DNA from: Archangiaceae bacterium
GTDB lineage: Bacteria > Myxococcota > Myxococcia > Myxococcales > Myxococcaceae
Reading direction: 5' to 3'
Assembly (NCBI GenBank): GCA_016879935.1
Contig: JAACJQ010000392.1
Coordinates: forward strand, 1-50,917
DNA: 50,917 bases
Below the pieces are notes generated by a model, which saw only the letters and a program-made list of their open reading frames with translations, did not search any database and was not told the DNA's origin. This document shows, one piece after another, positions 13,302-28,492 of this stretch (position 1 is its first letter; each line of letters starts with the position of its first letter). The translations under genes and the position numbers were made by a program.

Positions 13302-16076
13302 TCATGGCGTTTCGATGCACTCGCGTCGCTCGCAGACTTTCTGGAGCAATTTCTCGATGTCGGCGTGGCCCTTTTTCCATTCGTCGAAGGGCGCGGGATC
13401 GAACCCGGCCCTGATCTGCCACGGGCCCTGACGCTGGGAGTCTTCGACGACGAGGGCGTTCAGCTCGACGAGCGACGACGCGAGATCTCTGGGCGTCGGC
13501 AACATCGGCAGACTTCGTGAAGCGTCACCCTGATGCGCGCTGACCTCGGCGAGCGCGATCGCGGCCTGACGATCGGAGGGATCGAGCTGAGTCCACACGC
13601 TCGCGGCGGCCCGCCGGAGCGGATGCCCCTGCGCCGTCGACCACGCGACCGAGAGGAAGAGCGCCTTCGCACGCGGGGCGTCGAGCGGGAGCTCTTTCAG
13701 GCGGCGCTCGATCGCGAGATCAGCGCTGCTGGCTCGACGCGCTCGAAAGTCGGGCACCTGCGCGTACGACTTCGCCCAGAACGCGACCGGCGCTTCGTAC
13801 TCGAGGCGGTTGTGATCATCGCTGTTCGAGGGGCCGTCACCGGCGAACAGCGCCACCTGCTTCGAGTTCATCAACTGCCGCGCGAGCACGCCTTCGACGA
13901 GATCGACGTCGATGCGAATGAGATCGTCGTGCACCGACTTCAGCGCGAGCCGCCGAGCGAGATCATCGAACGAGGCCATGCCCGGCTTGCGCGAGGCGAG
14001 CAGCAGCAGATCGCCCTCCCCGCCCTGCCACACCGTCACCTCCGGGAAGCGACGCTGCAGCGTGCGCATCACGAGTCGAACGAGCTCGAGGTTCATCTCG
14101 TACATGTGAATCCACTGCACGAGCACGCCATCGGGCGCGAGGCGCTGATCGACGACCGAGAAGAACTCCTCGGTGAAGAGCGACGAGATGCCAGAGACCC
14201 ACGGGTTCGACGGCTCGCTGACGATGAGATCGTACTGGGTGCGCGAGAGCGAGAGTGACGTTCGGGCGTCGTCGATGGTGACGTGCACGCGCGGGTCGTC
14301 GAGGGCGCCGCGATTCACGTCGGAGAAGTAGCGCGCTGCCTCGAGCACGCCCGGGCTGATCTCGACCAGATCGAGCCGCTCGAGGGGGTGCGTGAGCGCC
14401 GAGCCGACGGTGACTGCGGCTCCGGCGCCAATCACCATCACCTGCTTCGGAGCGCGCGGCGCCAGCAACATGCCCATCTGCCCGAGCAGCACCTGCGTCG
14501 CCTGATCGTGCAGGCCGGTCGACGCGTCGGGTTTGCCGTTCACCAGCAGGAAGCGATGGCCGCCCTGCCGTTTGCCGGTGCCGACGTAGACGGTGGCGAA
14601 GGTGTCGTCTTTGACGAAGTTCGTCTCGAACGCGTTCGCGTAGGTGCGCAGGTACGAAGCGGGCGTCGAGAGCTTCACCATCTCGGGGTCGACACGGAAC
14701 GGAGAGAGCTGCGCCAGCAACGGGCCCCAGCCGCGGAACGCCGTGAGCGAGAGCAACACCGCGATGGCGACGACGGGAATGGCGAAGTAGCGATGCCGCG
14801 TCGTCGGCGCCGAGAGCACGGCCGCGAGCGCCCCGAGGCCGCTCAAGGTGAGACCGACCGAGAAGAGCAGCTCGAGGCCGATGGCGGGCATCAGCACGAG
14901 CCCACCCAGGAGCGCACCGAGCACCGTGCCGATGGTGTTGCCTGCCCAGACGAGTCCCAGCCGGCGTCCGACCGTGGCGTGGCCCTGGGCGACGACGCGT
15001 GCTCCGACGGGAAAGCCCGCGCCCATCAGGAACGTCGGCGCGATCATCACCAACGACGCGCTCGCGAACATGACGGCCTGCCACACGGGGAACGCGGCTT
15101 CCGATCTCGAGAGCACCGTCTTCGCGAGCAGGAAGAGCCACGGCACCAGCAGGTAGACGGGAATCGTGAGCGCAACGGTGACGACGACCCCCACCTGCAG
15201 CCAGCCGAAGAGGCGCAAATCGTCGGTCTCGGGCCGGCGCGACACCCAGAAGCTGCCGAGCGCGATACCGAGGATGAAGGAGCACACGATCCACGTGAAG
15301 GCGTAGGTCGAGCCGCCCACGACCAGCGTGAGCACCCGAATCCACCCGGTCTCGTAGAGCATCGAGGTGAAGCCCGAGAGCACCAGGCCCACCATCGCCG
15401 CGATCGTCGCGCTGCCGGTGTAGCGGGCCTGCCCCACAGGATCGACGTGCTGCTGCTCGAGCGCCGAGCGGGTCGGGAGCAACCGCGCGAAGGCGATCGT
15501 GACGACCGCCAGACCGACGTTGATCGCCGCGGCCCAGCGCGCGGTGGCCGAGAGCCCGATGGCGGGAAGGCTGATGGTGCCGGCGAACCACGCTCCGAGC
15601 GCCGCGCCGAACGAGTTCACGGCGTAGAGCTTCGCGAGCGTCGTGCGAATGGAGGGATCGGTGCGCGTCGCGTGCTTCAGCATCGCGGGCATGGTGCCGC
15701 CCATCGCCACGGTGGGCGCCAACAGCGTCAGCGCCGCGAACGAGAGCTTCGCGATGGGCCGGGCCGACTCCGAGAGCCCCGCCGCGACCGACAAGAACGT
15801 CTCGCCCATCACCTGCTGCACGAAGGGAAAGGCGAGCGCGTACAAGCCGACGAAGAGCTCGATGACGCCGTAGAGCGCGAGTGGTCGTTGGACGCGATCG
15901 GCGAGCCCGCCGAACAGCCACGCGCCCAGCGCGAGTCCGCCCATGAAGGTCGCCAGCACGATCGCGTGTGCCTGGCCCGAGTTGCCCAGAATGTCGGCCA
16001 GCGCCTTCGACCAGATCACCTCGTAGACGAGGCCGGTCGCGCCAGAGAGCACGAGGAAGACCGAGAGCAGTCTCAT
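13302..16076 (-). CDS. membrane-fused spermidine synthase-like protein
   Basis: The 924-residue protein combines an N-terminal transmembrane region of roughly 12-14 helices (about 1-440, starting LVLSGATGLVYEVIWSKAL) with a C-terminal aminopropyltransferase-fold domain (about 450-720). That domain has a SAM-binding glycine motif IGAGAAVTVGSA near residue 547, the acidic residue in LVEISPG, IDDAR, and SEPSNPWVSG. Spermidine synthases transfer aminopropyl from decarboxylated SAM; the fused membrane forms are common in bacteria but their substrates are mostly unknown. A tail of about 200 residues follows. ATG 16076 overlaps the stop of the paralog upstream by 4 bp (ATGA). Confidence 0.85.
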   Translation of the reverse strand: MRLLSVFLVLSGATGLVYEVIWSKALADILGNSGQAHAIVLATFMGGLALGAWLFGGLADRVQRPLALYGVIELFVGLYALAFPFVQQVMGETFLSVAAGLSESARPIAKLSFAALTLLAPTVAMGGTMPAMLKHATRTDPSIRTTLAKLYAVNSFGAALGAWFAGTISLPAIGLSATARWAAAINVGLAVVTIAFARLLPTRSALEQQHVDPVGQARYTGSATIAAMVGLVLSGFTSMLYETGWIRVLTLVVGGSTYAFTWIVCSFILGIALGSFWVSRRPETDDLRLFGWLQVGVVVTVALTIPVYLLVPWLFLLAKTVLSRSEAAFPVWQAVMFASASLVMIAPTFLMGAGFPVGARVVAQGHATVGRRLGLVWAGNTIGTVLGALLGGLVLMPAIGLELLFSVGLTLSGLGALAAVLSAPTTRHRYFAIPVVAIAVLLSLTAFRGWGPLLAQLSPFRVDPEMVKLSTPASYLRTYANAFETNFVKDDTFATVYVGTGKRQGGHRFLLVNGKPDASTGLHDQATQVLLGQMGMLLAPRAPKQVMVIGAGAAVTVGSALTHPLERLDLVEISPGVLEAARYFSDVNRGALDDPRVHVTIDDARTSLSLSRTQYDLIVSEPSNPWVSGISSLFTEEFFSVVDQRLAPDGVLVQWIHMYEMNLELVRLVMRTLQRRFPEVTVWQGGEGDLLLLASRKPGMASFDDLARRLALKSVHDDLIRIDVDLVEGVLARQLMNSKQVALFAGDGPSNSDDHNRLEYEAPVAFWAKSYAQVPDFRARRASSADLAIERRLKELPLDAPRAKALFLSVAWSTAQGHPLRRAAASVWTQLDPSDRQAAIALAEVSAHQGDASRSLPMLPTPRDLASSLVELNALVVEDSQRQGPWQIRAGFDPAPFDEWKKGHADIEKLLQKVCERRECIETP

Positions 16077-18604
16077 GGCATCGCCTCGAGCGCGGTGAGG
16101 GCGTCACGGAGGGCTTTGTGGCTCTGGTGCTTCTTGAGCGTCTCGCGGCCCAGCATTCGAAGTGGCCCGGTGTCGAGCAGCCTGAAGACGGCAGACTCGC
16201 GGTTCACCTGCGCCGTCATCGCCTCGATGGCGACTGCAACCACCTCGGGCGAAGGCTCGTCGCGCTTGAGCAGTGGCAACACGGCCTGCACGGCGCTGGC
16301 GACGTCGTTCTGTGCAAGGGCGGCGCGTGCGACGGCGACCGACGCCTCCTCCGAGTCGGGGGCGAGCGCCGCCCAGTGTTCGGCTGAAGAACGAACCAGC
16401 GGCTCCCACGCGGCGAAGTGACGGGCGAGCGAGCGGTGAATGGTGGCGAAGTCCGTGGCAGCGAGCGCCCGGTCGGCCGAGAGCGCCGAGAGTGGCAAAT
16501 CGGTCGGGCCGACGGCGCGACGCTGATCGGAGAGCTCGACCACCTCATCGAGGAACGCGGCGACCGGAACACCGAGCTCGAGCAGGGGCCGTCGGTCGGT
16601 CGTGGCGAGGCCTGGGCCCGCGAAACGAATCTGCCCCTCGTCGGTGTGCACCTGCCACGCGTACAGCGCCACCGGGTCGGCGAGCTCGAGGTCTTTCAGC
16701 GCGGTCGCGACCGGGGGCGTGTTCATGCGCGCCTCGAGCCGATCCTTCGAGAGCACCTGCGAGACCCCGCCCAGAACGATCGAGATCTCCCCTGCTCCGC
16801 CCCACGTGGAGCCGGTGGGGAACACGATGCGCATCGTCCGCAACGCCGTCTGCGCGAGGGTGGTGTTCGACTGAAGCAGATCGAGGCGCTGCACGAGCTG
16901 CCCCGCTGGAGCGAGGTGCCGACGCGCCGCCTTCCACGCCTCGAGCGTGAACAGCCCACGGGAGATCGGCGTGCCCGGCCTCGCAGGCAACATCACGATC
17001 AGATCCCACTCGCCCGTCGTGGTCTCGAGGAACTCGCGCAGCTCGGCGTGGTGCACCGTCGCCCCGTCGAGCGAGACCTTCAGGCGCTCGGCCGCGGCCA
17101 GCATCGAGGTCGGCGCGACGAGATCGATCTTCGTGACGCCGTGCGCCTTCAGCGCCTCGACCACGCCGGGGCTGACGCCGAGCACGAGGGCCGAACGCGT
17201 CTGCGCCGACGCAGTGAGCACGCCAGCGTGAACGCCCAGCAACGCGCGCTCCGAGGCGCGGCCGGTCATCCACTCCACGTGACCACCAGCACGAACGACG
17301 CTCCGATTCTGTTCGGTCGTCGTCGACGTGGCGTCACGCGCGTCGAGCGACAGCAGCGTGGACGACGGTGGCGGGCCGTTGCGATTCCACGCGGTCGCGG
17401 GCTCGATTCGCTCGGACCAGCCGCTGCCAACCACGAGCACCAGGCCCACTGGAACCACCGGGAGGAGATCACGCATCGTCCACGCCGAGGCCGCGACCAG
17501 CAGCAGGACGCCGACTCCCCAGAGCACCTCGGTGAAGCCTGCGTTCAACACGAGCGAGCCCAACAACCAGCCCGCGCCAGCCCCCCCACTCAGCCCCGAC
17601 AGCCACCGGCCAGCATTCGCCGGCGATCGAAGCGCGTCACGCGCCGAGCAGCCGAGCGACGTACCGACGAGGAACACGACCGGTGCCGTGAGCACACCGA
17701 CTGCCACGCAGCGGAGCACCACCATCACCAGCCAGCTCGAGGCCGTAGGTCGCACCACCGCTTCGGTGAAGATGAACGCGCCGGTGAGTCGTGGCGTGAG
17801 GAGCGCGAGCAGACCGAAGACGAGCCCGAGCGCCGACGTCGAGCGACGAAAGCCGAGATCGACGTCGACCGCCGACCGCGCCGCGACGATCGCGATCGAG
17901 ATGCCGAACACGATCAACACCGACGTGGCGATGAACGGCCTCGCACCAATCGACTCACCGAGCGCCCGCGAGAGCACCGACTGGCCGAGCATCACGACCA
18001 GCCCCAGCCCGGCACCGAGCGCCAGCAAGCGAACTGGAGCCACCTCGAGGGGAACGTCGGGCGCCTCGGTACGCTCCAGGCGAAGCAGCACGAAGACTGG
18101 GACGCTCACGATCGCAGCGAAGCCGCCAGCTCCACGCGCAAGCCCATCGAAGCCCACTTCGCCGAGCAGCCCGAGGTGCGAGAGCCCCACGCCCGTGGCG
18201 AGCCCCACTGCCCCGACGCCAAGCACCTGCGCGAGATCCTGCCCCGGTGCGTCTGGCCCGCCGCTGACCGCACGCGCGGCGCCCATCACGACCGACGCGA
18301 GCAGGCCGCCGAAGACTGCGGCCAGAACGACGATCACGAGCGGCTGTGGCCGACCGAGGAGGAAAACCGGCGTCGCGATCAGGAACGACAGCAACAGACT
18401 GCCGCTCCACAGCAGGCCGGGTCTCGAGACGTCGGTGAACATCCACCCCGCGATGGCGGCGCCGAGCAACGCAGCGCCTCCCGCGAGGCCGAACGCGACC
18501 CCGTCGCGGAGCACGAGCCCGCTCCAGCCAACGGCGAGCGCGCCCAGCGACGCACACGAGAGGAAGCAGAGCGCGACGAGGAGCGGCCGAAATCGCAAGC
18601 GCAC
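16073..18604 (-). CDS. divergent paralog of the membrane-fused spermidine synthase-like protein
   Basis: The 843-residue protein has the same layout as its downstream neighbour: many transmembrane helices (about 1-400) and then a Rossmann-like domain. The catalytic signatures have decayed. The glycine motif is reduced to LVLGVSPGVVEAL near 470, the acidic residue of VEISPG is replaced in LVAPTS, IDDAR is replaced by a HHAELREF region, and SEPSNPW by a MLPARPGTP region. The segment LFTLEAWKAARRHLAPAGQLVQRLDL still aligns with LFTEEFFSVVDQRLAPDGVLVQWIHM of the neighbour. It is probably not an active transferase and may be a structural or regulatory partner. Start GTG 18604. Confidence 0.75.
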   Translation of the reverse strand: MRLRFRPLLVALCFLSCASLGALAVGWSGLVLRDGVAFGLAGGAALLGAAIAGWMFTDVSRPGLLWSGSLLLSFLIATPVFLLGRPQPLVIVVLAAVFGGLLASVVMGAARAVSGGPDAPGQDLAQVLGVGAVGLATGVGLSHLGLLGEVGFDGLARGAGGFAAIVSVPVFVLLRLERTEAPDVPLEVAPVRLLALGAGLGLVVMLGQSVLSRALGESIGARPFIATSVLIVFGISIAIVAARSAVDVDLGFRRSTSALGLVFGLLALLTPRLTGAFIFTEAVVRPTASSWLVMVVLRCVAVGVLTAPVVFLVGTSLGCSARDALRSPANAGRWLSGLSGGAGAGWLLGSLVLNAGFTEVLWGVGVLLLVAASAWTMRDLLPVVPVGLVLVVGSGWSERIEPATAWNRNGPPPSSTLLSLDARDATSTTTEQNRSVVRAGGHVEWMTGRASERALLGVHAGVLTASAQTRSALVLGVSPGVVEALKAHGVTKIDLVAPTSMLAAAERLKVSLDGATVHHAELREFLETTTGEWDLIVMLPARPGTPISRGLFTLEAWKAARRHLAPAGQLVQRLDLLQSNTTLAQTALRTMRIVFPTGSTWGGAGEISIVLGGVSQVLSKDRLEARMNTPPVATALKDLELADPVALYAWQVHTDEGQIRFAGPGLATTDRRPLLELGVPVAAFLDEVVELSDQRRAVGPTDLPLSALSADRALAATDFATIHRSLARHFAAWEPLVRSSAEHWAALAPDSEEASVAVARAALAQNDVASAVQAVLPLLKRDEPSPEVVAVAIEAMTAQVNRESAVFRLLDTGPLRMLGRETLKKHQSHKALRDALTALEAMP

Positions 18605-18649: not shown

Positions 18650-21600
18650 TTACCGGCGACGACGGCGCAGCACCCCGAGCAGGACGAGCAGGCTCGACAC
18701 CCCGACACCGCCCGTCGACGAACAGCCGCGACGGCCCACCGTGCCAGGCACCTCGACGTCGGTGCGGTAGGTGCGCATGGTGGCCAGCTGATCGCGCGAG
18801 GCGCCGTAGCCGATGTTCACCGTGTAGCTGCGGTACGGCGCGTCGGCGGCGATGGCTCCCGAGACGAGGCCGGTCTTGTCGATCGACACGCCCGGAGGCA
18901 GCGCACCATCGAGCACGAAGAAGACACCGTCGGTGATGGTGACGGTGGGCTTGAGCTGCACGTTCACCGCGCCGCCGTGGTCGAGGCTCTTCGGCAGATC
19001 GCCCGTGATGCTGATGCCCGTGCTGGCGATGAAGACGGTGTACGTCACCGAGTCGGAGCGGGCCTGCGCGTCGGTCGATTCGAGGCGGAAGCGGAAGACC
19101 CCCGAACCCGTGGGGCTGCCCGAGAGAATGACGCGCTCGGTGACGGTGTCTTCGAGCATGAGCCCCGGCGGGAGCGAACCTTCGAGCACACGCCACTTCA
19201 CCGGCCGCGAGACAGGAGCCCCGCCCGCGTTCGACGCGACGATGTCGACGAGGTACTGCGCGCCGAGCAGGCCATCGGGGAGCGACGCGTTCGTGATGCG
19301 GAACGGCGACGAGTCGACGACGGTCATCGTGTAGCTGCGGGCGTCGCTGTTGCCGACCGAGTCGACGACGGTGATGGTGATGGGGCTGGCGGTTCCCAGC
19401 GCGCCGGTGGGGCTGCCGCTGAGGCGACCGCGCTCGCTGAGCTCGAGGCCGGCCGGGAGCAGCCCCGAGGTGACGAGGTACCGGTACGGGCCGACGCCTC
19501 CCTGTGCGCCGAGCTGAAAGTCGTAGGGAAGCAACCGCGCCGGAGGCGGCAGCAGTGGGCTCGTCAGCACGAGCGAGGCCGTGGAGCGGGAGACCTTGAG
19601 GCCACGCCGCGCTTCGATGGTGCGGGTGCCCGCGCGGAGAACGATGGTGAAGGCGTAGGCGCCCGTGGTGGTCGGCGTGCCCGCGATCTCGCCATTCATG
19701 GCCACCGTGATGCCGGGCGGAAGTTCGGCCGGGTTCTTCACCGTGAAGGTGGCGGTGTCGGTGGTGCCCGAGGCAGACAGCTCGGCGAGGTACGGCTGGT
19801 TCACGATCGCGTCGGGAATGAAGGGCGGGTCGAGCGCCAACGACTGCTGCACGACCTCGACGAGCGGCCCGGCCAGCCCGTTGTCGTTCTTGTCGACCTC
19901 GTCGACGAGGTTGTCGGGGTCGACGAGCACGGCCAGGTAGTAGGTCGCCGGCGACAGCAGGAGCGGAATGCGGATCAACTCGGTGGCCGTGTCCTGCTGG
20001 TCCACGGCCAGCGTGACGCTGCGCTCGTTCACTTCACCGTTCATCGTGACGATCGGCAGAATCGGGTCGTCGCGCGTGATGATCGTGTTGGCCGAGAGCA
20101 CGTAGCGGTACTTCGTCGAGGGCGAGGGCCGGTTGCCGTTGTTGGTGATGGTGCGGGTGACGGCGAAGACCTCTCCCACGCCGAGCTTCGAGGGCCCGCG
20201 CAGGTTGATGGGCAGCAGGTTCGGCGCCGGCGAACGCACCAGCACCGGGTCGGCCTTCGCGAAGTTGTTGCTGGGGTTCGTCTCGGCGAGGCCGGCGGCG
20301 ACGGCAGCCGCGAAGAAGAAGTACGGCGCCCGCGGCAGAATGGAGTTGTTCACCGCACGCGTCGGCACGATGCACGTCTTGCCGATCACCTGCGACGCGC
20401 CGGGCGCGAGCGAGAACGGGCCCTCTTCGCAGACGAACGGGTCGGTGAGACCGTTGAGGGTCTCGTTGTCGGACATGAAGAAGACGACCGAGACGTTCGG
20501 AGCCGTCGCGCCGCCCTGATTTCGAACGGTCGCCTCGACACGAATCGGCTCACCGAAGAACCCTGCGGTCGCGGTCTCGTAGGGAACGACCGGGCGCGCG
20601 ACGCGAATGCGCTCCATGATCAGATCGGCCTGACGCACGAGCATGCGAGCACGGCTGATGGCCTGGTTGTTTGCGTCGGAGACTTCGACGACGGTGCCGG
20701 CGTTGGGGCCATCGTCGACCTGCAACAGCACGTAGTAGTCGTCGGCCGGAACGGTGGCCGGCAGCGTGAACGTGATCTGCGCGACGACGTTCTCACCGCC
20801 CTGCACCGCGCGCGTGCCGCTGTAGACCTCGCGATCATCCATCGAGAAGACGGTGTCGGCCGAGAGGAAGATCTTGAACGGCACGACGCCAGCCGGGTCG
20901 AAGCCCTGGTTGGTGAGCGCGTACGAGATGGTGACCGGGTCTCCGGGGCCTGCCGAGGGAGGGCCGGCGACGTTCTCGGCGACGAGGTCGACACCCGCGA
21001 AGTACGGCGTGGTGGTCGCCAGCACGTTGTTCACTTCGTTCGTCTCGGTGACGGCGTTCGACTCGTCGACGACGGCGAGCACGTAGAACGAGCCCGATGT
21101 CGGCCGCAGTGCAGTGCCCGTCGCCGCGTTGGTCACCGCCCCGTTCGGCACGAGCGTGAACGGCCCCGGAGGCTGCGCGCCGGTGACGATCTCGGTGTCA
21201 GCGACGCCGGCGTCGGCCGAGGGCGCGTCGAAGAGCGTGTCCTCCGAGAGGTAGAGCCGGTAGTTGAATGGCCCCGAGGTCGCGGTGCCGAAGTTGCGCA
21301 TCGAGACCTCGGCTCCGATCTGCAGATCGTTGCCAGCCTGCGAGATGCCCGTGACGCGAAGGCGGGTCGGCTGCAGATCGACGCCCGGCGGCGGCCCAAA
21401 GCGCACGTAGGTGATCGGCGAGCCGGTGTTCATCGGGTCGAAGCTGGCGATGTCGCAGTGCGCGTACGAAGGCACGGGCATGGTCGGCACCGTACGGTTC
21501 TGGCAGCTCGCAGCGGGAAGCGCGTTGGTGCCCACCGCGCCGGTCGGAGACTCGATGCCGATGGTGGCCGAGATCGCCTGCCCCGAGCCGAGCATCGAGC

Positions 21601-22111
21601 CGTAGTAGAACTCGATGACGCCGTTCTCCCAGAGGCGAATCTGGAAGTTCAGCGTGTACATGCCGAAGCGGCGGTTCCAGTCTTTCCACTCGATGGCCAG
21701 GCCCTGCCCGTTCGGCCCCGTCACCACCTGCTGTCGCAGCGCGCTGGTGCCGTTGTTGCCGTCGAGGTCGTCCCAGAACGGGGCGATGATGCCGTTGGGC
21801 TCGACCGTCGAGGGAATCGCCACGTTCGAGGGGAAGTCGTCGGTGGGAATCGTCGAGGCCTCGAAGAAGGCCATGCCGTTCGCCGTGACGACGATGCTCG
21901 TGTACTGGCGGTTGTAGAACTGAAACGTGAAGGGCAACGCCACGTTCGCTCGGCCGCGGTCCGACACGCTGTTGGGAGCAGTCAGCGTGATCGCCTGCGG
22001 GTTCGTGAGCGACGGGTAGCCGCTGATCGCCTGGGTGGTGGCCACGTATTGGGCAGCAGCCGACCCCGACCACAAGGCGAGCAGAAGGGCCATCGATCTC
22101 AACGACGTCAT
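18650..22111 (-). CDS. large CARDB/Ig-like surface protein with MYXO-CTERM tail
   Basis: The 1153-residue exported protein starts at ATG 22111 with GAGGAG 9 bp upstream and a signal peptide ending SGSAAAQ. Residues about 25-230 form an N-terminal beta domain (FTFQFYNRQY, APFWDDLDG). Residues 240-770 hold successive CARDB-type beta-sandwich repeats, each with a VDLQP- or ADLIMERI-type opening and a V-x-E-x-N-NN-type close. Residues 775-1100 hold Ig-like putative domains with the LPPGI or LPPGL ... GSPTGSG signature. The end has a Gly-Cys-Ser, a hydrophobic helix and five arginines: a MYXO-CTERM sorting signal, which myxosortases process with the Cys as lipid attachment site. Probably cell-surface adhesion or envelope scaffold. 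Confidence 0.85.
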   Translation of the reverse strand: MTSLRSMALLLALWSGSAAAQYVATTQAISGYPSLTNPQAITLTAPNSVSDRGRANVALPFTFQFYNRQYTSIVVTANGMAFFEASTIPTDDFPSNVAIPSTVEPNGIIAPFWDDLDGNNGTSALRQQVVTGPNGQGLAIEWKDWNRRFGMYTLNFQIRLWENGVIEFYYGSMLGSGQAISATIGIESPTGAVGTNALPAASCQNRTVPTMPVPSYAHCDIASFDPMNTGSPITYVRFGPPPGVDLQPTRLRVTGISQAGNDLQIGAEVSMRNFGTATSGPFNYRLYLSEDTLFDAPSADAGVADTEIVTGAQPPGPFTLVPNGAVTNAATGTALRPTSGSFYVLAVVDESNAVTETNEVNNVLATTTPYFAGVDLVAENVAGPPSAGPGDPVTISYALTNQGFDPAGVVPFKIFLSADTVFSMDDREVYSGTRAVQGGENVVAQITFTLPATVPADDYYVLLQVDDGPNAGTVVEVSDANNQAISRARMLVRQADLIMERIRVARPVVPYETATAGFFGEPIRVEATVRNQGGATAPNVSVVFFMSDNETLNGLTDPFVCEEGPFSLAPGASQVIGKTCIVPTRAVNNSILPRAPYFFFAAAVAAGLAETNPSNNFAKADPVLVRSPAPNLLPINLRGPSKLGVGEVFAVTRTITNNGNRPSPSTKYRYVLSANTIITRDDPILPIVTMNGEVNERSVTLAVDQQDTATELIRIPLLLSPATYYLAVLVDPDNLVDEVDKNDNGLAGPLVEVVQQSLALDPPFIPDAIVNQPYLAELSASGTTDTATFTVKNPAELPPGITVAMNGEIAGTPTTTGAYAFTIVLRAGTRTIEARRGLKVSRSTASLVLTSPLLPPPARLLPYDFQLGAQGGVGPYRYLVTSGLLPAGLELSERGRLSGSPTGALGTASPITITVVDSVGNSDARSYTMTVVDSSPFRITNASLPDGLLGAQYLVDIVASNAGGAPVSRPVKWRVLEGSLPPGLMLEDTVTERVILSGSPTGSGVFRFRLESTDAQARSDSVTYTVFIASTGISITGDLPKSLDHGGAVNVQLKPTVTITDGVFFVLDGALPPGVSIDKTGLVSGAIAADAPYRSYTVNIGYGASRDQLATMRTYRTDVEVPGTVGRRGCSSTGGVGVSSLLVLLGVLRRRRR

Positions 22112-22147
22112 CGGGACAGACTCCTCGGGGGGCGGCTCCCGGCGCCC

Positions 22148-22176
22148 TTCAGTGACCGGCCGTGTGGCTCTATATA
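22148..22176 (+). promoter_or_regulatory. possible sigma-70 promoter for the CehA/McbA operon
   Basis: TATATA at 22171-22176 is the most AT-rich hexamer in the 136-bp divergent gap. TTCAGT at 22148-22153 lies exactly 17 bp before it as a half-matching -35 element. Because TATATA is self-complementary it could equally serve the opposite gene at 22111. Sequence resemblance only. Confidence 0.3.
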
Positions 22177-22247
22177 CGAGCGTGTGCGTGCTGCACGAGG
22201 CTTGTGCACGTGAAGTACCGAGTTTTCCGGCCGTCTCCCGAGGCACT

Positions 22248-23342
22248 ATGACCGTCGTCGCCGTTGCCGTGACCCTTCTGCTCTCGCAGGCTGCCCCCAA
22301 AGCCCACGCGCATCAGGTGCTGCTCGATCAGTGCCTCGTCTATGCGGCTGATCCAAAGAACCCGTGGGCGCTCGCGCACGGCATGACCGCCTACGGCGGC
22401 AGCTACCTCGCCAGTGACGGCCGCAAAGCGACCGACGTCATCACGAAGGACTTCCTCGCGCGCAACCTGCTGCCCGACGGCGGCGTGGGCGTCGGCAACA
22501 CGTACGGCTTCCAGCGCTACGCGAGCGATCGCACGCCCATCGAGCCGCACTCGAACCTCATCACCAAGACGTTCGTGATGGCGAAGCTGCCGCTCACCAC
22601 GACGTTCCCGACGGCCTGGGGCACCGTCACGCTGCAGCAGCTGGTCGACGGCGTGAAGAAGGGCTTTCGCCACGTGCCCTCGAGCGACGAGTACTGGCGC
22701 GACGCCGCGTGGACGATCGACCTCTTCTCGCAGACGGGCAAACCGGGAACGACGATCGCGACCGAGCTGGGGCCGATCTCCCTCGACGTGGTGATGAACG
22801 ACGCCCTCGACGCGCTCGAGAAGAACCAGGCCGAGCTCGCCGATGGGCTCAAGAAGGGGCTGCCCGAGGTGCCGAAACGAAAGCAGGGCATCTACGCGCA
22901 CCCGTGCGGCGGCCTGCACTTCATTCAGGCGGTGTTCGGCTGGTCGCGGTTTCCCGAGGTGAAGAAGAAGTGGGGCCCGCGCCTCGAGGGGCAGATTGCC
23001 GTACTCTTCTACCGGCTCGAGTCGGAGCGTCGGCAATACGACGCAGCGCTCCAGCAGGCGCCACAATTCAAGCTGAATATCCTCACGCAAGAGGTGAAGT
23101 TCTACGGCCACTTTCTCGAGACGCTCGGCCGCCTCAAGAACGAGACCGGGTGGAAGCCGAACAAAGAGCAGGAGCTGTCGATCAATCGCGCCAGAGCGCT
23201 CCTCGACGCGGCGGTGAAGGGGCTGGAGGAGATGAAGGCGTTCTCGACGATGGCGGCGATCAAGCAGTCGAACCCGCAGGTGTACCTCGATCTCATCGGG
23301 GACAGCTGCCACGCAGCGAATGGGTGGAATCAATGGCCGTGA
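22248..23342 (+). CDS. exported protein of unknown function, first gene of a five-gene operon
   Basis: This 364-residue protein has a signal peptide (MTVVAVAVTLLLSQAAPKAHA). The mature part is soluble with no transmembrane helices. It is helical in its second half (regular Leu/Lys/Glu spacing from about 170 on) and includes HPCGGLHFIQAVFGWSRF, with a conserved-looking His-Pro-Cys-Gly-Gly. I do not recognise a family; the helical array and paired aromatic residues could suggest an alpha/alpha toroid. ATG 22248 has GAGG 4 bp upstream. The end overlaps the start of the metallohydrolase gene by 10 bp, so the two are strongly coupled. Confidence 0.7.
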   Translation: MTVVAVAVTLLLSQAAPKAHAHQVLLDQCLVYAADPKNPWALAHGMTAYGGSYLASDGRKATDVITKDFLARNLLPDGGVGVGNTYGFQRYASDRTPIEPHSNLITKTFVMAKLPLTTTFPTAWGTVTLQQLVDGVKKGFRHVPSSDEYWRDAAWTIDLFSQTGKPGTTIATELGPISLDVVMNDALDALEKNQAELADGLKKGLPEVPKRKQGIYAHPCGGLHFIQAVFGWSRFPEVKKKWGPRLEGQIAVLFYRLESERRQYDAALQQAPQFKLNILTQEVKFYGHFLETLGRLKNETGWKPNKEQELSINRARALLDAAVKGLEEMKAFSTMAAIKQSNPQVYLDLIGDSCHAANGWNQWP

Positions 23343-26299
23343 GGCTCGTGGTGTTGGGGGCGGCGCTCGCGGTGTTGAGCGCTGGGTGTTCGAACGAGAG
23401 CTGCTTGTCGGGAGATGCCGCGTGTGTCGTCGCGTCTCCATGCCCGAAGGTGTCGTTCGAGTGTGGCGGCCTGCAGGAGCAGCTCGCCATCGAGACGATC
23501 GCGGGCCCCTCGATGCGGCCCGGCGGGTGGAACGGCCTGGGCGCGCGCGGTGACGTGAAGCTGTCGAACGGCTTCGCCGACGTGGTGATCGCCGGCATCG
23601 GCACGCAGAACTACCTCGACCCCAACGGCGGCTCGGTGCTCGATCTCGCGCCGCACGGTCAGCCGAAAGACGTCGTCACCAACATCTTCCAGGTCACCGG
23701 CATTCTTCCAGGCGACAGCATTCGGTACACGTCGATGAAGGTGATCGACGAGCGGCCCGATCGCGTGGCGGTCGAGGTGCGCGGCACCCTCGATGGCCGG
23801 AAAGATGTGCTCGCCTTCACGCGCTACGAGCTGCGGCCGTGTGATCGCGGCGTGCGCGTTCGCACCGAGGTGATCAACGGCTCCAACGACACCGAGCTGT
23901 GGAGCCTCGTCGACGGCTTCTACTGGAGCGGCCGTGAAGCCCTGCCCTTCGCTCCCGGCGCCGGCTTCGGCTTCGCGAGCCCGTCGTTCAACCTGCTCAC
24001 CATCAACGGCGTGTTCCGCTCGTTCCCCTACCTCGCCGCGGCGGGGCACACGGGCGACGACCGCACCTCGTCGATCGCGAGCGCGAGCTGCACGTCACCG
24101 TCCATGGAGGGCTTCAACAGCGATCAGGTGAGCTCGGCCGGGCTGCCCCGCACGCGCGTTCCGCCCCGCGGCTACCAGGTGTTCGAGCGTTTCTTCGTCG
24201 TGGGCGACACGAAGGGTGTCAGCGGCGCGGTCGATCTCGCGCTCGAGGTACGCAAGCAGGTGACGAAAGAGGCGTACGCGACGGTGAAAGGCCGCGTCGA
24301 GCGACCGGGCGCGATCGCCGTGAACTCCGAGCGAGAGACGAGCATTCAGATCTCGGAAGGCACGCTCGCGTCGACGGCGGCCCAGCGTATTCCGTGGACG
24401 CAGATCGTCCCCGGCATGGACGGCTCGTTCAGCGCACGGCTGCCCGCGGGCAAGACGTACGTGGTCGAGGTGCACTCGTTCGGCCGCAAGGTGCTCGAGA
24501 AGGAGTTCACCAACGTCGCCGACGGCGCCGACTTCGGAACCTTCGTGCTGCCCTCGACGGGGACGGTCACCTTCGAGGTGAAAGACAGCTCGAACATGCA
24601 GGGGCTCGATGCCGAGATCTTCATCGTGCCGGTCGACGCGGCCCAGCGCGAGAAGGTGTTGGGCACGTTCCACGGCCGGTTCACCGCCTGCGCCCCGTGG
24701 CTGGGCACGCCGTCAGGAGCCTCGCCGGCCTGCAACCGCATTCTCGTGCGCCAGGGCGTGACGACCGCCGAGGTGCCGCTGGGCAAGTTCTACGTCTACG
24801 CGTTCCATGGGCCCTGGTGGTCGCTGGGCCGCGACTCGGTGACGGTGATGCCGGGCGCTTCGACGATCTCGTTCACCCTCACCCGCCTCGCCGGGCTCAA
24901 GCCAACCGGCTCGCTCACCGCCGACTTCCACATTCACGGCGCGGCCAGCTTCGACAGCTCGATTCCCGACTACGACCGCGTGCTCGCGTTCTCGGCGAGC
25001 GATCTCGACGTCGCCGTCAGCACCGATCACGACGTCATCTACGACTACACGCGGGTCGTCGAGCAGCTCGGGCTCTCGCAGCGCATGTCGACGGTGACGG
25101 GGCTCGAGACGACCGGCCACATTCCCTTCCTCTTCATTCCCAACTCGTCGTTCCCGCTGGTCATCGGGCACTACAACATGTGGCCGCTCAAGTACGACCC
25201 GTCGCTGCCGCGCAACGGTGGGCCGTACGACGAGCTCGTCGAGCCCGGCATGTTGTTCGAGCGCACGAAGCCGCTGTTCACCGGCACGCCCGTCATCGAG
25301 CTCAATCACCCGTGGGCCGTCGCAGAGTTCGGGCGCGATCTCGGGTTCCCCCGCGCGCTCGCGATGGATCTTCGGAAGGACCTCCCCGCTGCCGACGATG
25401 GCACCAACCTGGGCATCTACGTGCGCACACCAGTCGGCGCGACGTTCGCCAACGGAGGCCACCACGCCCAGGAGGTGATGAATGGCTCCGACAACGGGCT
25501 GTTCCTGCAGTACCGCGCCTTCTGGTGGTACGTGCTGAATCAGGGGCTGAAGAAGATCGGCACGGCGAACTCCGACTCGCACAGCCTCACCGACAACACC
25601 GTCGGCATGCCGTTCAACCTCGTCACCGCCGCGACCCAGGCCGGGCCCACCTTCGACGTGAACACGCTCAACCGCGCGGTGCTCGACGGTCGCAGCCTGG
25701 GCTCCAACGGCCCCGTCATCGAGGCCACCATCGAAGACTCGACGGGCACGGCGCGCTCGTTCGGGACCACCACGTTCACGCCGAAAGCTGACGCGAAGGT
25801 GAAGGTCAAGGTCAGCTCGGCCCCGTGGATTCCCGTTCAAGAGGTGCGCTTCGTCGTGAACGGGCAGATCGTGAAGACGGTGAAAGAGACGACGCTGCCG
25901 ACCGACCCGTTCGCGACCAGTGGTTCGTTCGTTCGCTACGAGGGCGAAGTGGCCTTGAGCGAGCTGTTCGCCGGGGTGACTGGCGACGCGTGGTTGTCGA
26001 TCGAAGCCGGGAGGCCGCTGCTCGCTTCGGCTGATCTCGGCGGCGGGCAAGGCGGCGCGCTCGACGGTGTTCCCGACACGACCGACAACAACGGCGACGG
26101 CGTGGCCGACGCGAAGGACGTGGCCGAGGGTGGAAAGATCGGGCCGCTCGGCGATCCTCCGCAGCCCAAAGAAGGCGAGACGGGGTTCGACTTCGCGAAC
26201 ATCACGCTGGGCTACCCGCTGGCGTTCACGAACCCGTTCTTCCTCGACCGGACCGGTGACGGGCAGTTCACCGCGCCGGGTGCGAAGGGAGGCCGGTGA
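23333..26299 (+). CDS. CehA/McbA-type PHP-domain metallohydrolase lipoprotein
   Basis: The 988-residue protein has a lipobox (LSAGC, Cys19) and is probably anchored in the outer membrane. After a Cys-rich start and beta-rich N-terminal domains (about 40-520) comes a PHP metal-binding domain: DFHIH at 531-535, TDHD at 564-567, NHPW at 658-661, and DSH at 748-750. This is the order seen in CehA/McbA, PHP hydrolases first known from carbaryl degradation but widespread with unknown substrates. A C-terminal part follows, with DTTDNNGDGVADAKD, a calcium-loop-like segment, near the end. It overlaps both neighbours (10 bp and TGATG). Metal-dependent hydrolysis is inferred; the substrate is unknown. 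Confidence 0.82.
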   Translation: MAVRLVVLGAALAVLSAGCSNESCLSGDAACVVASPCPKVSFECGGLQEQLAIETIAGPSMRPGGWNGLGARGDVKLSNGFADVVIAGIGTQNYLDPNGGSVLDLAPHGQPKDVVTNIFQVTGILPGDSIRYTSMKVIDERPDRVAVEVRGTLDGRKDVLAFTRYELRPCDRGVRVRTEVINGSNDTELWSLVDGFYWSGREALPFAPGAGFGFASPSFNLLTINGVFRSFPYLAAAGHTGDDRTSSIASASCTSPSMEGFNSDQVSSAGLPRTRVPPRGYQVFERFFVVGDTKGVSGAVDLALEVRKQVTKEAYATVKGRVERPGAIAVNSERETSIQISEGTLASTAAQRIPWTQIVPGMDGSFSARLPAGKTYVVEVHSFGRKVLEKEFTNVADGADFGTFVLPSTGTVTFEVKDSSNMQGLDAEIFIVPVDAAQREKVLGTFHGRFTACAPWLGTPSGASPACNRILVRQGVTTAEVPLGKFYVYAFHGPWWSLGRDSVTVMPGASTISFTLTRLAGLKPTGSLTADFHIHGAASFDSSIPDYDRVLAFSASDLDVAVSTDHDVIYDYTRVVEQLGLSQRMSTVTGLETTGHIPFLFIPNSSFPLVIGHYNMWPLKYDPSLPRNGGPYDELVEPGMLFERTKPLFTGTPVIELNHPWAVAEFGRDLGFPRALAMDLRKDLPAADDGTNLGIYVRTPVGATFANGGHHAQEVMNGSDNGLFLQYRAFWWYVLNQGLKKIGTANSDSHSLTDNTVGMPFNLVTAATQAGPTFDVNTLNRAVLDGRSLGSNGPVIEATIEDSTGTARSFGTTTFTPKADAKVKVKVSSAPWIPVQEVRFVVNGQIVKTVKETTLPTDPFATSGSFVRYEGEVALSELFAGVTGDAWLSIEAGRPLLASADLGGGQGGALDGVPDTTDNNGDGVADAKDVAEGGKIGPLGDPPQPKEGETGFDFANITLGYPLAFTNPFFLDRTGDGQFTAPGAKGGR

Positions 26300-27135
26300 T
26301 GCGATCGATCGTTCTGATGGCGCTCGTCTCGACGGCTGCGCTCGCGCAGGAAGTGTCGCAGCCGGTAGCCGACGTGACGCCGCGTGGCGGGTGTGTGGCC
26401 GAGGACTCGCGTGGGCTGCCCGAAGGCCCGCTCGGCGTCGGGTACGTCGAGGCCGATCTCGCGGTCGGCCGTCGCCCCTGCCCTCGCACCGAAGTCGGCC
26501 TGGCCGTGCGCGGCGCCGGCATCATCGATACGCCGAACTTCTACGGAAACGTCGGCGCACAGGGCGCGCTGTTCGGCTCGTGGGCCGTTCGCCCGCGCAC
26601 GGAGCTCTTCGCGTCGCTCGAGGCCGTGAGCTTCGGCTTCACGCAGAACGCGACGCTGACGAAGACCGAGATCACGCTGGGCCACATGACAGCGGGCGTC
26701 TCGCAAGTGCTGTACGACACCGAGCGGCTGACCGGCGCCTTCACGGGGCGAGTACTGCTGCCGACGTCGTTCGAGATTCCAGGCATGCGACTGGTCGGCG
26801 CAGAGGTGGGGCACGCCGTCAGCTGGCGGCCAAAGACCTGGCTCGAGGTTCATGGCGCGGCCAGCGTCGATCTCACCCTGGGTCTCGGAGCAGCCCGCAG
26901 TGATCCCCGCGTCGGTGGCTTCGCGGTCGTCGGCGCAATGTGGCAGCCCACGACGTGGTTCGGCTTCGTGCTCGACGTGAATGGGCGGATCGGCCGGGTC
27001 AGCTACCTGGCGCCGACGATCGGCGCGCGCTTCCGCATCTCGTCGTTCGGCATCGAGGTCGGCGGCAGTCTTCCGATCGTCGGCAATGATCGGCACGACT
27101 TCGTGGCGAGCCTGCGGTTCAGCTGGCGGTTCTGA
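26299..27135 (+). CDS. putative outer-membrane beta-barrel protein
   Basis: The 278-residue protein has a signal peptide (ending LAQ at about residue 17). The mature sequence shows alternating hydrophobic/polar strands separated by short turns, many aromatic residues at strand ends, and a C-terminal phenylalanine (SLRFSWRF), as expected for a BAM-inserted beta barrel. Two cysteines (in GGCVAED and RRPCPRT) may form a disulfide in an early loop. It starts at ATG 26299 inside the stop of the metallohydrolase gene (TGATG), so it is probably its outer-membrane partner. No specific porin family is recognised. Confidence 0.7.
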   Translation: MRSIVLMALVSTAALAQEVSQPVADVTPRGGCVAEDSRGLPEGPLGVGYVEADLAVGRRPCPRTEVGLAVRGAGIIDTPNFYGNVGAQGALFGSWAVRPRTELFASLEAVSFGFTQNATLTKTEITLGHMTAGVSQVLYDTERLTGAFTGRVLLPTSFEIPGMRLVGAEVGHAVSWRPKTWLEVHGAASVDLTLGLGAARSDPRVGGFAVVGAMWQPTTWFGFVLDVNGRIGRVSYLAPTIGARFRISSFGIEVGGSLPIVGNDRHDFVASLRFSWRF

Positions 27136-27347
27136 TGGCGGCGAGCCTGTACGAAGAACTGTCGGCGAAGCTCGAGAAGGACCCGCGGCTGACGAAGCGT
27201 GGTGGGCCGCGGGTCGACTTGAGCCTGCTGCTCTTCAATGCGCGCGAAGACGTGCGGGTGTTGTGGGAAGCAGCGCAGTCGGTTCCGGGCAACGCGGAGC
27301 TCGAGGCGGCCGTCGAGCGGCTCCGGCCCATCTTCGGGCGGCGGTGA
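27135..27347 (+). CDS. small 70-residue protein in the CehA/McbA operon
   Basis: A short, mainly helical, charged protein without signal peptide. Features are LYEELSAKLEKDPRLTK at the start and AELEAAVERLRPIF at the end. Both termini overlap neighbours as TGATG (27133-27137 and 27345-27349), which is strong evidence that it is translated. It would be cytoplasmic. Family and function are unknown. Confidence 0.7.
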   Translation: MAASLYEELSAKLEKDPRLTKRGGPRVDLSLLLFNAREDVRVLWEAAQSVPGNAELEAAVERLRPIFGRR

Positions 27348-27892
27348 TGGCGGACCAGAACGACTCGCAGCGGACGATCATCGGCGCGTTGCTCGGCGGA
27401 GCCGCCATCGCGCTCGGCGTCGCGGGCTTCTTCGCGGCGCAGCCGAAGACGACGACGCCGACTGCGGCCCAGGGTCCGATGGTTCCCGGCTTCGACCTGC
27501 CGCGGTTGCAGGGCGGTTCGGTGAAGCTGTCGGACCTGCGCGGGAAGATCGTGGTGATCGACTTCTGGGCGACGTGGTGCCCGCCCTGTCGCGCCGAGAT
27601 GCCGTGGCTGGTGGCGATGGCGAAGAAGTACGAATCGCGCGGAGTCGTCTTCGTGGCGATCAGCGAAGACGATCCTCCCGGTCAGGTGCCGCTGGTGACC
27701 GAGTTCTCACGCGAAGTGCCTGGCCTCGAGCGCTTCGCGGTGCTGGGCGACCCCGAGATCGAGTCGCAGTACGGCGTCACCTCGCTCCCGACATTGTTCA
27801 TCGTCGATCGCGAGGGCCGTCTGGTGCAGCGGCTTCAGGGCGCGGCGGAAGAGTCGAAGGTCGTCGCGCTCATCGACCGCCTCGCCGACTGA
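27347..27892 (+). CDS. membrane-anchored TlpA/ResA-like thioredoxin
   Basis: The 181-residue protein has an uncleaved-looking N-terminal transmembrane helix (about 11-31) and a periplasmic thioredoxin-fold domain of the TlpA/AhpC-TSA type. The redox motif is WCPPC (Cys78, Cys81), followed by the cis-proline segment TSLPTLFIV. Members keep periplasmic cysteines reduced, for example in cytochrome c maturation or metal delivery. In this operon its targets could be the cysteines of the metallohydrolase lipoprotein (N-terminal cluster) or of the barrel protein; that is inference. Start ATG 27347 overlaps the small gene. The stop meets the convergent stop in TGATCA (27890-27895). Confidence 0.85.
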   Translation: MADQNDSQRTIIGALLGGAAIALGVAGFFAAQPKTTTPTAAQGPMVPGFDLPRLQGGSVKLSDLRGKIVVIDFWATWCPPCRAEMPWLVAMAKKYESRGVVFVAISEDDPPGQVPLVTEFSREVPGLERFAVLGDPEIESQYGVTSLPTLFIVDREGRLVQRLQGAAEESKVVALIDRLAD

Positions 27893-28492
27893 TCACGGGT
27901 TCAGATCGATCGTGTAGCGGAAGTCGTACGAGTCGTTGTCGTACGTGTACGTCGTGCCATCGACCGTCATCGACCCCGTGATGCTCGCGCGCATGCGGAA
28001 GCTGTTGTTCGTGGTGTCGATGTTCGTCGTGATCTTCAGGTTGTTGTACTGAATCGAGCCGCGCTCGGTGTCGTTCTCGACGGTGATCGGCCCGCCGTTC
28101 ATGTTCACCGACAGGTTCAGCATGTTCGTGTTGCCGCCCGAGCTGGTGCCCATCGCGGAGTACGTCGACGTGATCGGCCCACCATTCATCGTCCACGTCC
28201 GGCCGTCGTCCGTCTTGTACTTGCACGCGTTGCCGGTGATCGAGAACGAGACCGCGGCGCTGTTCGCCGTCGAGTTCGCGGTGACGCTGACCGCAACGGT
28301 GCCGCCCTCTTCACAGCTGGCGTTGGCGTTGATGGTGTCGATGGGGGTCGCCGCCTTGAAGGCCGCGCTGCCCGAGAGCCGCGACATGCGCGTGGCGTAC
28401 TCCGCGGCCTGCTGCTTGTTCATCTGCAGCGGGTCTTTCGCACAGCCAACGAGCGCCAGCAGACCAACGACCACGAGCGAATTGCGAACCAT
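27893..28492 (-). CDS. putative lipoprotein, beta-rich
   Basis: The 199-residue protein has a clear lipoprotein signal (GLLALVGC, Cys17). The mature domain is rich in Ser/Thr/Asn with alternating polarity (VAVSVTANSTANSAAVSFSI), suggesting a beta sandwich or barrel-like lipocalin fold. Cys60 and Cys89 (approximate) could pair. No family recognised. It ends exactly at the stop of the convergent thioredoxin gene. Upstream, 57 bp separate it from another lipoprotein gene on the same strand. Confidence 0.7.
   Translation of the reverse strand: MVRNSLVVVGLLALVGCAKDPLQMNKQQAAEYATRMSRLSGSAAFKAATPIDTINANASCEEGGTVAVSVTANSTANSAAVSFSITGNACKYKTDDGRTWTMNGGPITSTYSAMGTSSGGNTNMLNLSVNMNGGPITVENDTERGSIQYNNLKITTNIDTTNNSFRMRASITGSMTVDGTTYTYDNDSYDFRYTIDLNP

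What the first reader, a model, noticed from the sequence alone, without database searches (positions are those of the whole stretch)
22248..27892. Five-gene overlapping operon around a CehA/McbA-type PHP lipoprotein
Every junction overlaps (10 bp, then TGATG three times). The products cover the envelope: exported helical protein, outer-membrane-type metallohydrolase with a complete PHP metal set (DFHIH, TDHD, NHPW, DSH), a beta-barrel candidate, a small cytoplasmic protein and a TlpA-like thioredoxin. This looks like one molecular machine for hydrolysing or importing an extracellular substrate, or for maturing a metalloenzyme. I know no described system with this composition.
Basis: partly seen in the sequence, partly recalled or inferred. 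Interest (0 to 1): 0.8.

Follow-up and report, generated by a model that had tools for sequence, protein, structure and literature searches.

The report
Myxobacterial hydrolase and outer-membrane channel operon
A soil myxobacterium carries an envelope gene set whose conserved heart is a lipid-anchored metal-dependent hydrolase made together with its own outer-membrane channel, usually with a third exported protein of unknown function; it resembles the channel-plus-hydrolase pair known from pesticide-degrading Pseudomonas but is a stable chromosomal fixture in many myxobacteria.

Summary
The five genes and all four overlaps are exactly as described. B (CehA/McbA-type PHP lipoprotein) and C (outer-membrane barrel) form a near-obligate pair: all 37 of 195 Myxococcota genomes with a B ortholog also have C, and C follows B on the same strand wherever the fetched contig reaches that far (one second-copy paralog excepted), in seven families. 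A, a single-copy exported protein predicted to fold as an alpha/alpha toroid, joins the pair only in the window's own family and lives without B or C in many genera. D and E are recent additions: they follow C in only two species. C is modelled as a 12-stranded channel matching COG4313 Pput2725 (Z 22.4) and FapF (Z 23.2). Carbaryl hydrolase McbA of Pseudomonas has the same kind of partner: McbT, a COG4313-type channel encoded next to mcbA. Best reading: C admits a small substrate through the outer membrane and B, tethered there, hydrolyses it; A may act on substrate or product. The substrate is unknown. Verdict: partly supported; a new variant of a known kind, not a new five-part machine.

The parts
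22248..23342 (+). Gene A: exported protein, predicted alpha/alpha toroid (364 aa), family with no Pfam/NCBIfam model
   Evidence: AF2 pLDDT 89; single copy in 93/195 Myxococcota genomes; 12 polar/aromatic residues invariant down to 28% identity
23333..26299 (+). Gene B: lipoprotein with N-terminal beta-type region, CehA/McbA-type PHP domain (aa ~529-875) and C-terminal Ca-binding-like DxNxDG repeat (988 aa)
   Evidence: NF038032 89.7 bits vs cut-off 80, all 18 orthologs match; metal residues invariant
26299..27135 (+). Gene C: 12-stranded outer-membrane channel with conserved N-terminal pre-barrel segment and Cys32/Cys61 pair (278 aa)
   Evidence: AF2 pLDDT 86; FapF Z 23.2 and COG4313 channel Z 22.4; ortholog L118 passes PF13557 cut-off; directly downstream of B wherever the contig allows
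27135..27347 (+). Gene D: 70-aa protein, no family; adventitious addition
   Evidence: Found in 4 of 60 genomes; follows C only in G000 and G133
27347..27892 (+). Gene E: membrane-anchored TlpA/ResA-like thioredoxin (WCPPC); adventitious addition
   Evidence: closest orthologs outside G133 lie on contigs other than A-B-C
24923..25582 (+). PHP metal-site span in B: D531, H533, H535, D565, H566, E592, H613, H659, D748, H750
   Evidence: All but D565 (D or E) invariant in 18 orthologs; all present in four paralogs examined
22112..22247 (.). Divergent intergenic region, presumed promoter region of the operon
   Evidence: Only non-coding gap upstream of A; no sigma-70 match found

Best explanation
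A-B-C is an envelope scavenging unit whose core is the B-C pair. Inferred mechanism: C, a 12-stranded outer-membrane channel with a lumen-occluding N-terminal segment, lets a small (probably partly hydrophobic) extracellular ester, carbamate or phosphoester through; B, a lipoprotein held at the outer membrane, hydrolyses it with its metal-bearing PHP domain; A, an exported alpha/alpha-toroid protein with a conserved His/Cys/Asp/Glu set, binds or further processes substrate or product in those lineages that have it beside B-C. D and E were added downstream recently in a sublineage and are not required. Shown here: gene linkage, domain family, complete PHP residue set, predicted folds, non-conservation of D/E. 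Inferred: transport direction, substrate class, membrane placement and physical contact of B and C, and A's role. It works like McbT-McbA of carbaryl degraders.
For: B-C linkage: 37/37 genomes with B have C; 40/195 have C; C follows B on the same strand in every B ortholog locus whose contig extends beyond B, apart from one second-copy paralog, with translational coupling kept in many. B is CehA/McbA with the full PHP set invariant. C model matches COG4313 channel 4rl8 (Z 22.4, 2.4 A over 223 residues) and FapF (Z 23.2); one ortholog passes PF13557, the family of McbT. McbA and McbT genes are adjacent in pXWY; in strain C5pp they are co-transcribed, McbA is periplasmic, and McbT speeds growth on carbaryl in an engineered strain (PMC11302072). 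hhalign links B to McbA across the domain before the PHP motif and the HxH (prob 96). An own-genome paralog of B also lies beside a Porin_O_P-like gene and a type I phosphodiesterase.
Against: C as a profile and McbT as a single sequence do not align by hhalign, so the C-McbT link rests on fold and one weak Pfam hit. FapF, a protein exporter, scores as well as the uptake channel (differences under 1 Z are ties). A second B paralog has no C (L142). Other CehA/McbA paralogs in these genomes are not seen beside a PF13557 barrel (second list cut). B keeps the DxH motif that McbA lacks, so substrates may differ. No substrate, activity or localisation data.
Confidence: 0.5

Rival explanations
1. C is a secretion or display channel for B (or for A), as FapF is for amyloid subunits: the barrel moves or anchors the lipoprotein hydrolase to the cell surface, where it acts outside the cell.
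For: FapF is the top structural match (Z 23.2); B-C pairing is one-to-one; B is Cys-rich with eight conserved non-lipid Cys, compatible with an exposed protein.
Against: C lacks FapF's long N-terminal coiled coil: only a short helix precedes the barrel; FapF substrates stay unfolded (PMC5557850), whereas B is a 988-aa multi-domain protein; the uptake channel 4rl8 scores equally (Z 22.4); no Fap-like subunits nearby.
Confidence: 0.2
2. B and C cooperate in envelope biogenesis or remodelling (for example turnover of a phospholipid, LPS or peptidoglycan phosphoester), not in nutrient scavenging; C is a structural partner.
For: Chromosomal, largely single-copy, conserved across Myxococcota families, unlike mobile catabolic genes; PHP enzymes are mostly phosphoesterases (general knowledge); an own-genome paralog lies beside a type I phosphodiesterase.
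Against: Absent from whole genera such as g6, g8 and g20, so not essential; C has the fold of a substrate channel.
Confidence: 0.2
3. All five genes form one machine in this species, with E (TlpA-like) keeping the many Cys of B and C in the right redox state and D as an assembly factor.
For: Every junction overlaps in G000 and D-E follow C in G133 too; B has eight and C two conserved non-lipid Cys, with paired losses suggesting disulfides.
Against: D and E are absent from the locus in all other relatives and their orthologs are elsewhere in the genome, while B and C keep their Cys there.
Confidence: 0.1

Closest known systems
McbT-McbA pair of carbaryl-degrading Pseudomonas (C5pp; plasmid pXWY of XWY-1)
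   Same: CehA/McbA-family exported hydrolase encoded next to, and co-transcribed with, a 12-stranded COG4313-type outer-membrane channel (PMC11302072)
   Different: Channel gene precedes the hydrolase gene; embedded in a carbaryl catabolic cluster (on a plasmid in XWY-1); McbA is described as periplasmic, not as a lipoprotein, and lacks the DxH motif (SDYP); no gene A; McbT is a strong PF13557 member while C is divergent
COG4313 / PF13557 outer-membrane channels (Pput2725, TcpY, SphA)
   Same: 12-stranded barrel of similar size with an N-terminal segment before strand 1; Z 22.4 to 4rl8
   Different: Window C and nearly all orthologs do not reach PF13557; the structure paper's text mentions no cysteine or disulfide, whereas C has a conserved Cys pair in this segment
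FapF amyloid exporter
   Same: Same barrel fold and plugged architecture, Z 23.2
   Different: No long N-terminal coiled coil in C; no Fap subunits nearby
CehA carbamate hydrolases (Rhizobium, Sphingobium)
   Same: Curated family NF038032; HxH and further catalytic His (PMC8292978)
   Different: B is lipid-anchored, with a Cys-rich N-terminus and C-terminal DxNxDG repeats; substrates untested

Membership tests
CehA/McbA family metallohydrolase (NF038032, PHP superfamily) | Passes the curated model cut-off | tested here: met
   89.7 vs 80 bits; all 18 orthologs match at E <= 0.1, best 9.3e-28
CehA/McbA family metallohydrolase (NF038032, PHP superfamily) | PHP metal ligands (HxH, D/E-H of motif II, E, H, H, DxH) | tested here: met
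   All invariant in 18 orthologs except D565, which is D or E
CehA/McbA family metallohydrolase (NF038032, PHP superfamily) | Metal-dependent ester or carbamate hydrolysis | not testable with these tools
   No assay
COG4313 / PF13557 outer-membrane channel | Match to PF13557 above gathering score | tested here: inconclusive
   Window C: none; one of 26 C sequences, L118, 26 vs 22 bits
COG4313 / PF13557 outer-membrane channel | 12-stranded barrel | tested here: met
   AF2 pLDDT 86, 12 strands with one interrupted; Z 22.4 to 4rl8
COG4313 / PF13557 outer-membrane channel | N-terminal segment folded into the lumen | tested here: inconclusive
   Alignment begins at model residue 48 with residue 1 of 4rl8, segment confident (pLDDT ~87); coordinates not inspected
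McbT-McbA type channel-hydrolase pair | Adjacent, co-oriented channel and CehA/McbA hydrolase genes | tested here: met
   gene order is reversed
McbT-McbA type channel-hydrolase pair | Orthology of the channel to McbT | tested here: inconclusive
   hhalign A5 vs McbT not significant
FapF amyloid secretion channel | Long N-terminal periplasmic coiled coil | tested here: not met
   Only a short helix after the signal peptide
TlpA/ResA-like thioredoxin (gene E) | Thioredoxin fold domain with WCxxC and membrane anchor | tested here: met
   PF00578 E 1.1e-22; ResA subfamily model E 1.5e-26 but below its cut-off; WCPPC and an N-terminal hydrophobic stretch in the sequence
LanC-like or other named alpha/alpha toroid enzymes (gene A) | Match to a family model or a clear fold match | tested here: inconclusive
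   No credible Pfam match in 23 members; best fold match transcobalamin Z 13.3, within the range usual for helical models

The most novel reading that the evidence does not exclude
A-B-C is a dedicated channel-hydrolase-toroid complex at the myxobacterial outer membrane that captures and cleaves one specific class of compound (for example a prey-derived or signalling phosphoester), with A as a new type of periplasmic toroid metalloenzyme; McbT-McbA would then be a recent catabolic version of an older envelope arrangement.
Probability: 0.15. Interest if true: 0.7.

Novelty: new variant of a known kind. Interest (0 to 1): 0.4.

Why it matters
The papers found here describe the CehA/McbA family almost only from pesticide degradation, and its natural role is open. 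A subfamily kept in the chromosome with its own outer-membrane channel across a phylum gives a defined, genetically tractable pair in which that role can be tested, and suggests that the hydrolase-plus-channel arrangement of carbaryl degraders has older parallels. Gene A adds an unnamed, widely conserved exported family with a striking invariant residue set.

Tried and rejected
PDB sequence searches with profiles of A, B and C gave nothing significant. Foldseek found no PDB match for A at E <= 0.001; VIA-align gave transcobalamin and designed toroids, taken as fold class only. The order of motifs in A (AHG ... HPCGGLH ... CH) suggested LanC, but there was no Pfam support, the Cys before the last His is not invariant, and the model coordinates could not be inspected. 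A general rule that CehA/McbA genes sit beside PF13557 barrels in these genomes was tested and not seen outside the B-C family (the second list was cut). Plasmids hold no relative of A. No sigma-70 promoter was found. Papers were searched for an earlier report of this gene set; none was found in the held library, which lacks most subscription journals; one search with a slash in the term was invalid and was not repeated.

Full report
Observation. The overlaps are 10 bp and then three TGATG junctions. B carries a lipobox (LSAG-C), passes the NCBI curated CehA/McbA model (89.7 bits, cut-off 80; residues 529-875) and has all the PHP motifs named. No Pfam family matches A, B or C, and D has only a chance-level hit; E is a thioredoxin/AhpC-like protein with WCPPC.

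Neighbourhood test. A was searched in 145 genomes of the order and 195 of the phylum, B and C in the same 195. The B profile finds 37 genomes at E <= 1e-60. Every one also has C, which is found in 40; the three extra hits (G027-G029) are weak (best E 1e-25 to 1e-34) and have no B beside them. If genomes were independent the chance would be about 1e-36; they are not, but the link recurs in seven families. In the loci fetched from public genomes and from the genome set, C follows B on the same strand in every B ortholog locus whose contig goes that far, including Polyangia such as Labilithrix. Many of these junctions keep 1- or 4-bp overlaps. One second-copy B paralog stands without C (L142).

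A is different. It occurs in 93 of 195 genomes, essentially as a single copy. It stands directly upstream of B in nearly all genomes of the window's family that have both, except one where it lies 2.7 kb away on the other strand (L049) and one where 1.4 kb with a partial copy of A intervenes (L064/L110). It is also kept by genera that have neither B nor C (g5, g6, g8, g9, g20 and others), and in G161 and G163 A and B-C occur on separate contigs. So A is a partner in one lineage, not a core part.

D and E follow C only in G000 and G133. The closest E relatives elsewhere (G088, G053, G130; 53-67% identity) and the other D relatives (G136, G053) lie on contigs other than A-B-C. In G053, D and E are not on one contig either. 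They are best read as recent additions to the operon of a sublineage.

What the parts are. B: the metal-site residues D531, H533, H535, H566, E592, H613, H659, D748 and H750 are invariant in 18 orthologs (D565 is D or E), and are kept in the four paralogs examined. Nine Cys (one of them the lipidated one) are invariant or nearly so. C453 and C467 are lost together in the same single ortholog, as expected of a disulfide. A DxNxDG-type repeat near the C-terminus suggests calcium binding (dockerin-like hits in two orthologs). C: AlphaFold2 with 26 sequences gives a 12-stranded barrel, pLDDT 86. The best structural neighbours are FapF (5o65, Z 23.2) and the COG4313 channel Pput2725 (4rl8, Z 22.4, 2.4 A over 223 residues), the latter aligned from model residue 48 to residue 1 of the channel, that is through the segment that plugs Pput2725 (PMC4493636). 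The pre-barrel segment of C is enriched in invariant residues (12 of 42 in 34 residues, p 0.004), and Cys32/Cys61 are kept together or lost together. Ortholog L118 passes PF13557, the Pfam family of McbT. A: a confident all-alpha model with short hairpins (pLDDT 89) whose best matches are alpha/alpha barrels (transcobalamin Z 13.3); the tool warns that such Z values are common for helical models. H44, H101, W155, C220, H224, E260, Y264, H288, E291, D348, D352 and H355 are invariant in 29 sequences down to 28% identity, which points to a functional site; by helix count most fall on alternate helices, so a shared cavity is likely but not verified.

How it most likely works. The carbaryl system gives the parallel. 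McbA is a CehA/McbA hydrolase found in the periplasm, and mcbT, next to it and co-transcribed, encodes a 12-stranded channel whose expression speeds growth on carbaryl (PMC11302072). In plasmid pXWY the two genes are adjacent, and the channel gives PF13557 at E 3.7e-67. B aligns with McbA across the domain before the PHP motif and the HxH (hhalign probability 96). Hence I read B-C as a channel that lets a small substrate in and a tethered hydrolase that cleaves it. The substrate class is open: carbamates and esters by family, phosphoesters by the wider PHP superfamily (general knowledge) and by a paralog that sits beside a Porin_O_P-like gene and a type I phosphodiesterase. The main weaknesses are that C and McbT do not align by hhalign, that FapF, an exporter, matches equally well, and that B has the DxH motif that McbA lacks.

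Verdict. Partly supported. I rate it a new variant of a known kind.

Noticed in passing
L070:2699-8568 (G000:C442): Another CehA/McbA paralog in the same genome sits directly behind a Porin_O_P-like gene (PF07396 E 8.5e-4, just under cut-off) and a type I phosphodiesterase (PF01663 E 1.8e-37).
   Followed up: partly
G000 whole genome: The CehA/McbA family is expanded: 11 matches in this genome and up to 13 in relatives.
   Followed up: no
L110 / L064 (G134:C2): About 1.4 kb between A and B that ends in a duplicated 3' end of A.
   Followed up: no
L142:3089-7475 (G182:C8): A second-copy B paralog without C, preceded by a TrAA12-like gene rich in GDGD repeats.
   Followed up: no
L128 (B and C orthologs): The Cys pair of C (32/61) and one Cys pair of B (453/467) are both lost in the same genome.
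   Followed up: partly
window 18650-22111 (-): Divergent neighbour with four CARDB and several He_PIG Ig-like domains and a C-terminal tail that looks like a MYXO-CTERM sorting signal.
   Followed up: no
window 13302-18604 (-): Two adjacent large membrane genes; the first has a spermidine-synthase domain behind a membrane half, the second looks similar by its N-terminus.
   Followed up: no
window 27892/27893: The stop of E abuts the 3' end of the convergent gene 27893-28492 with no gap.
   Followed up: no
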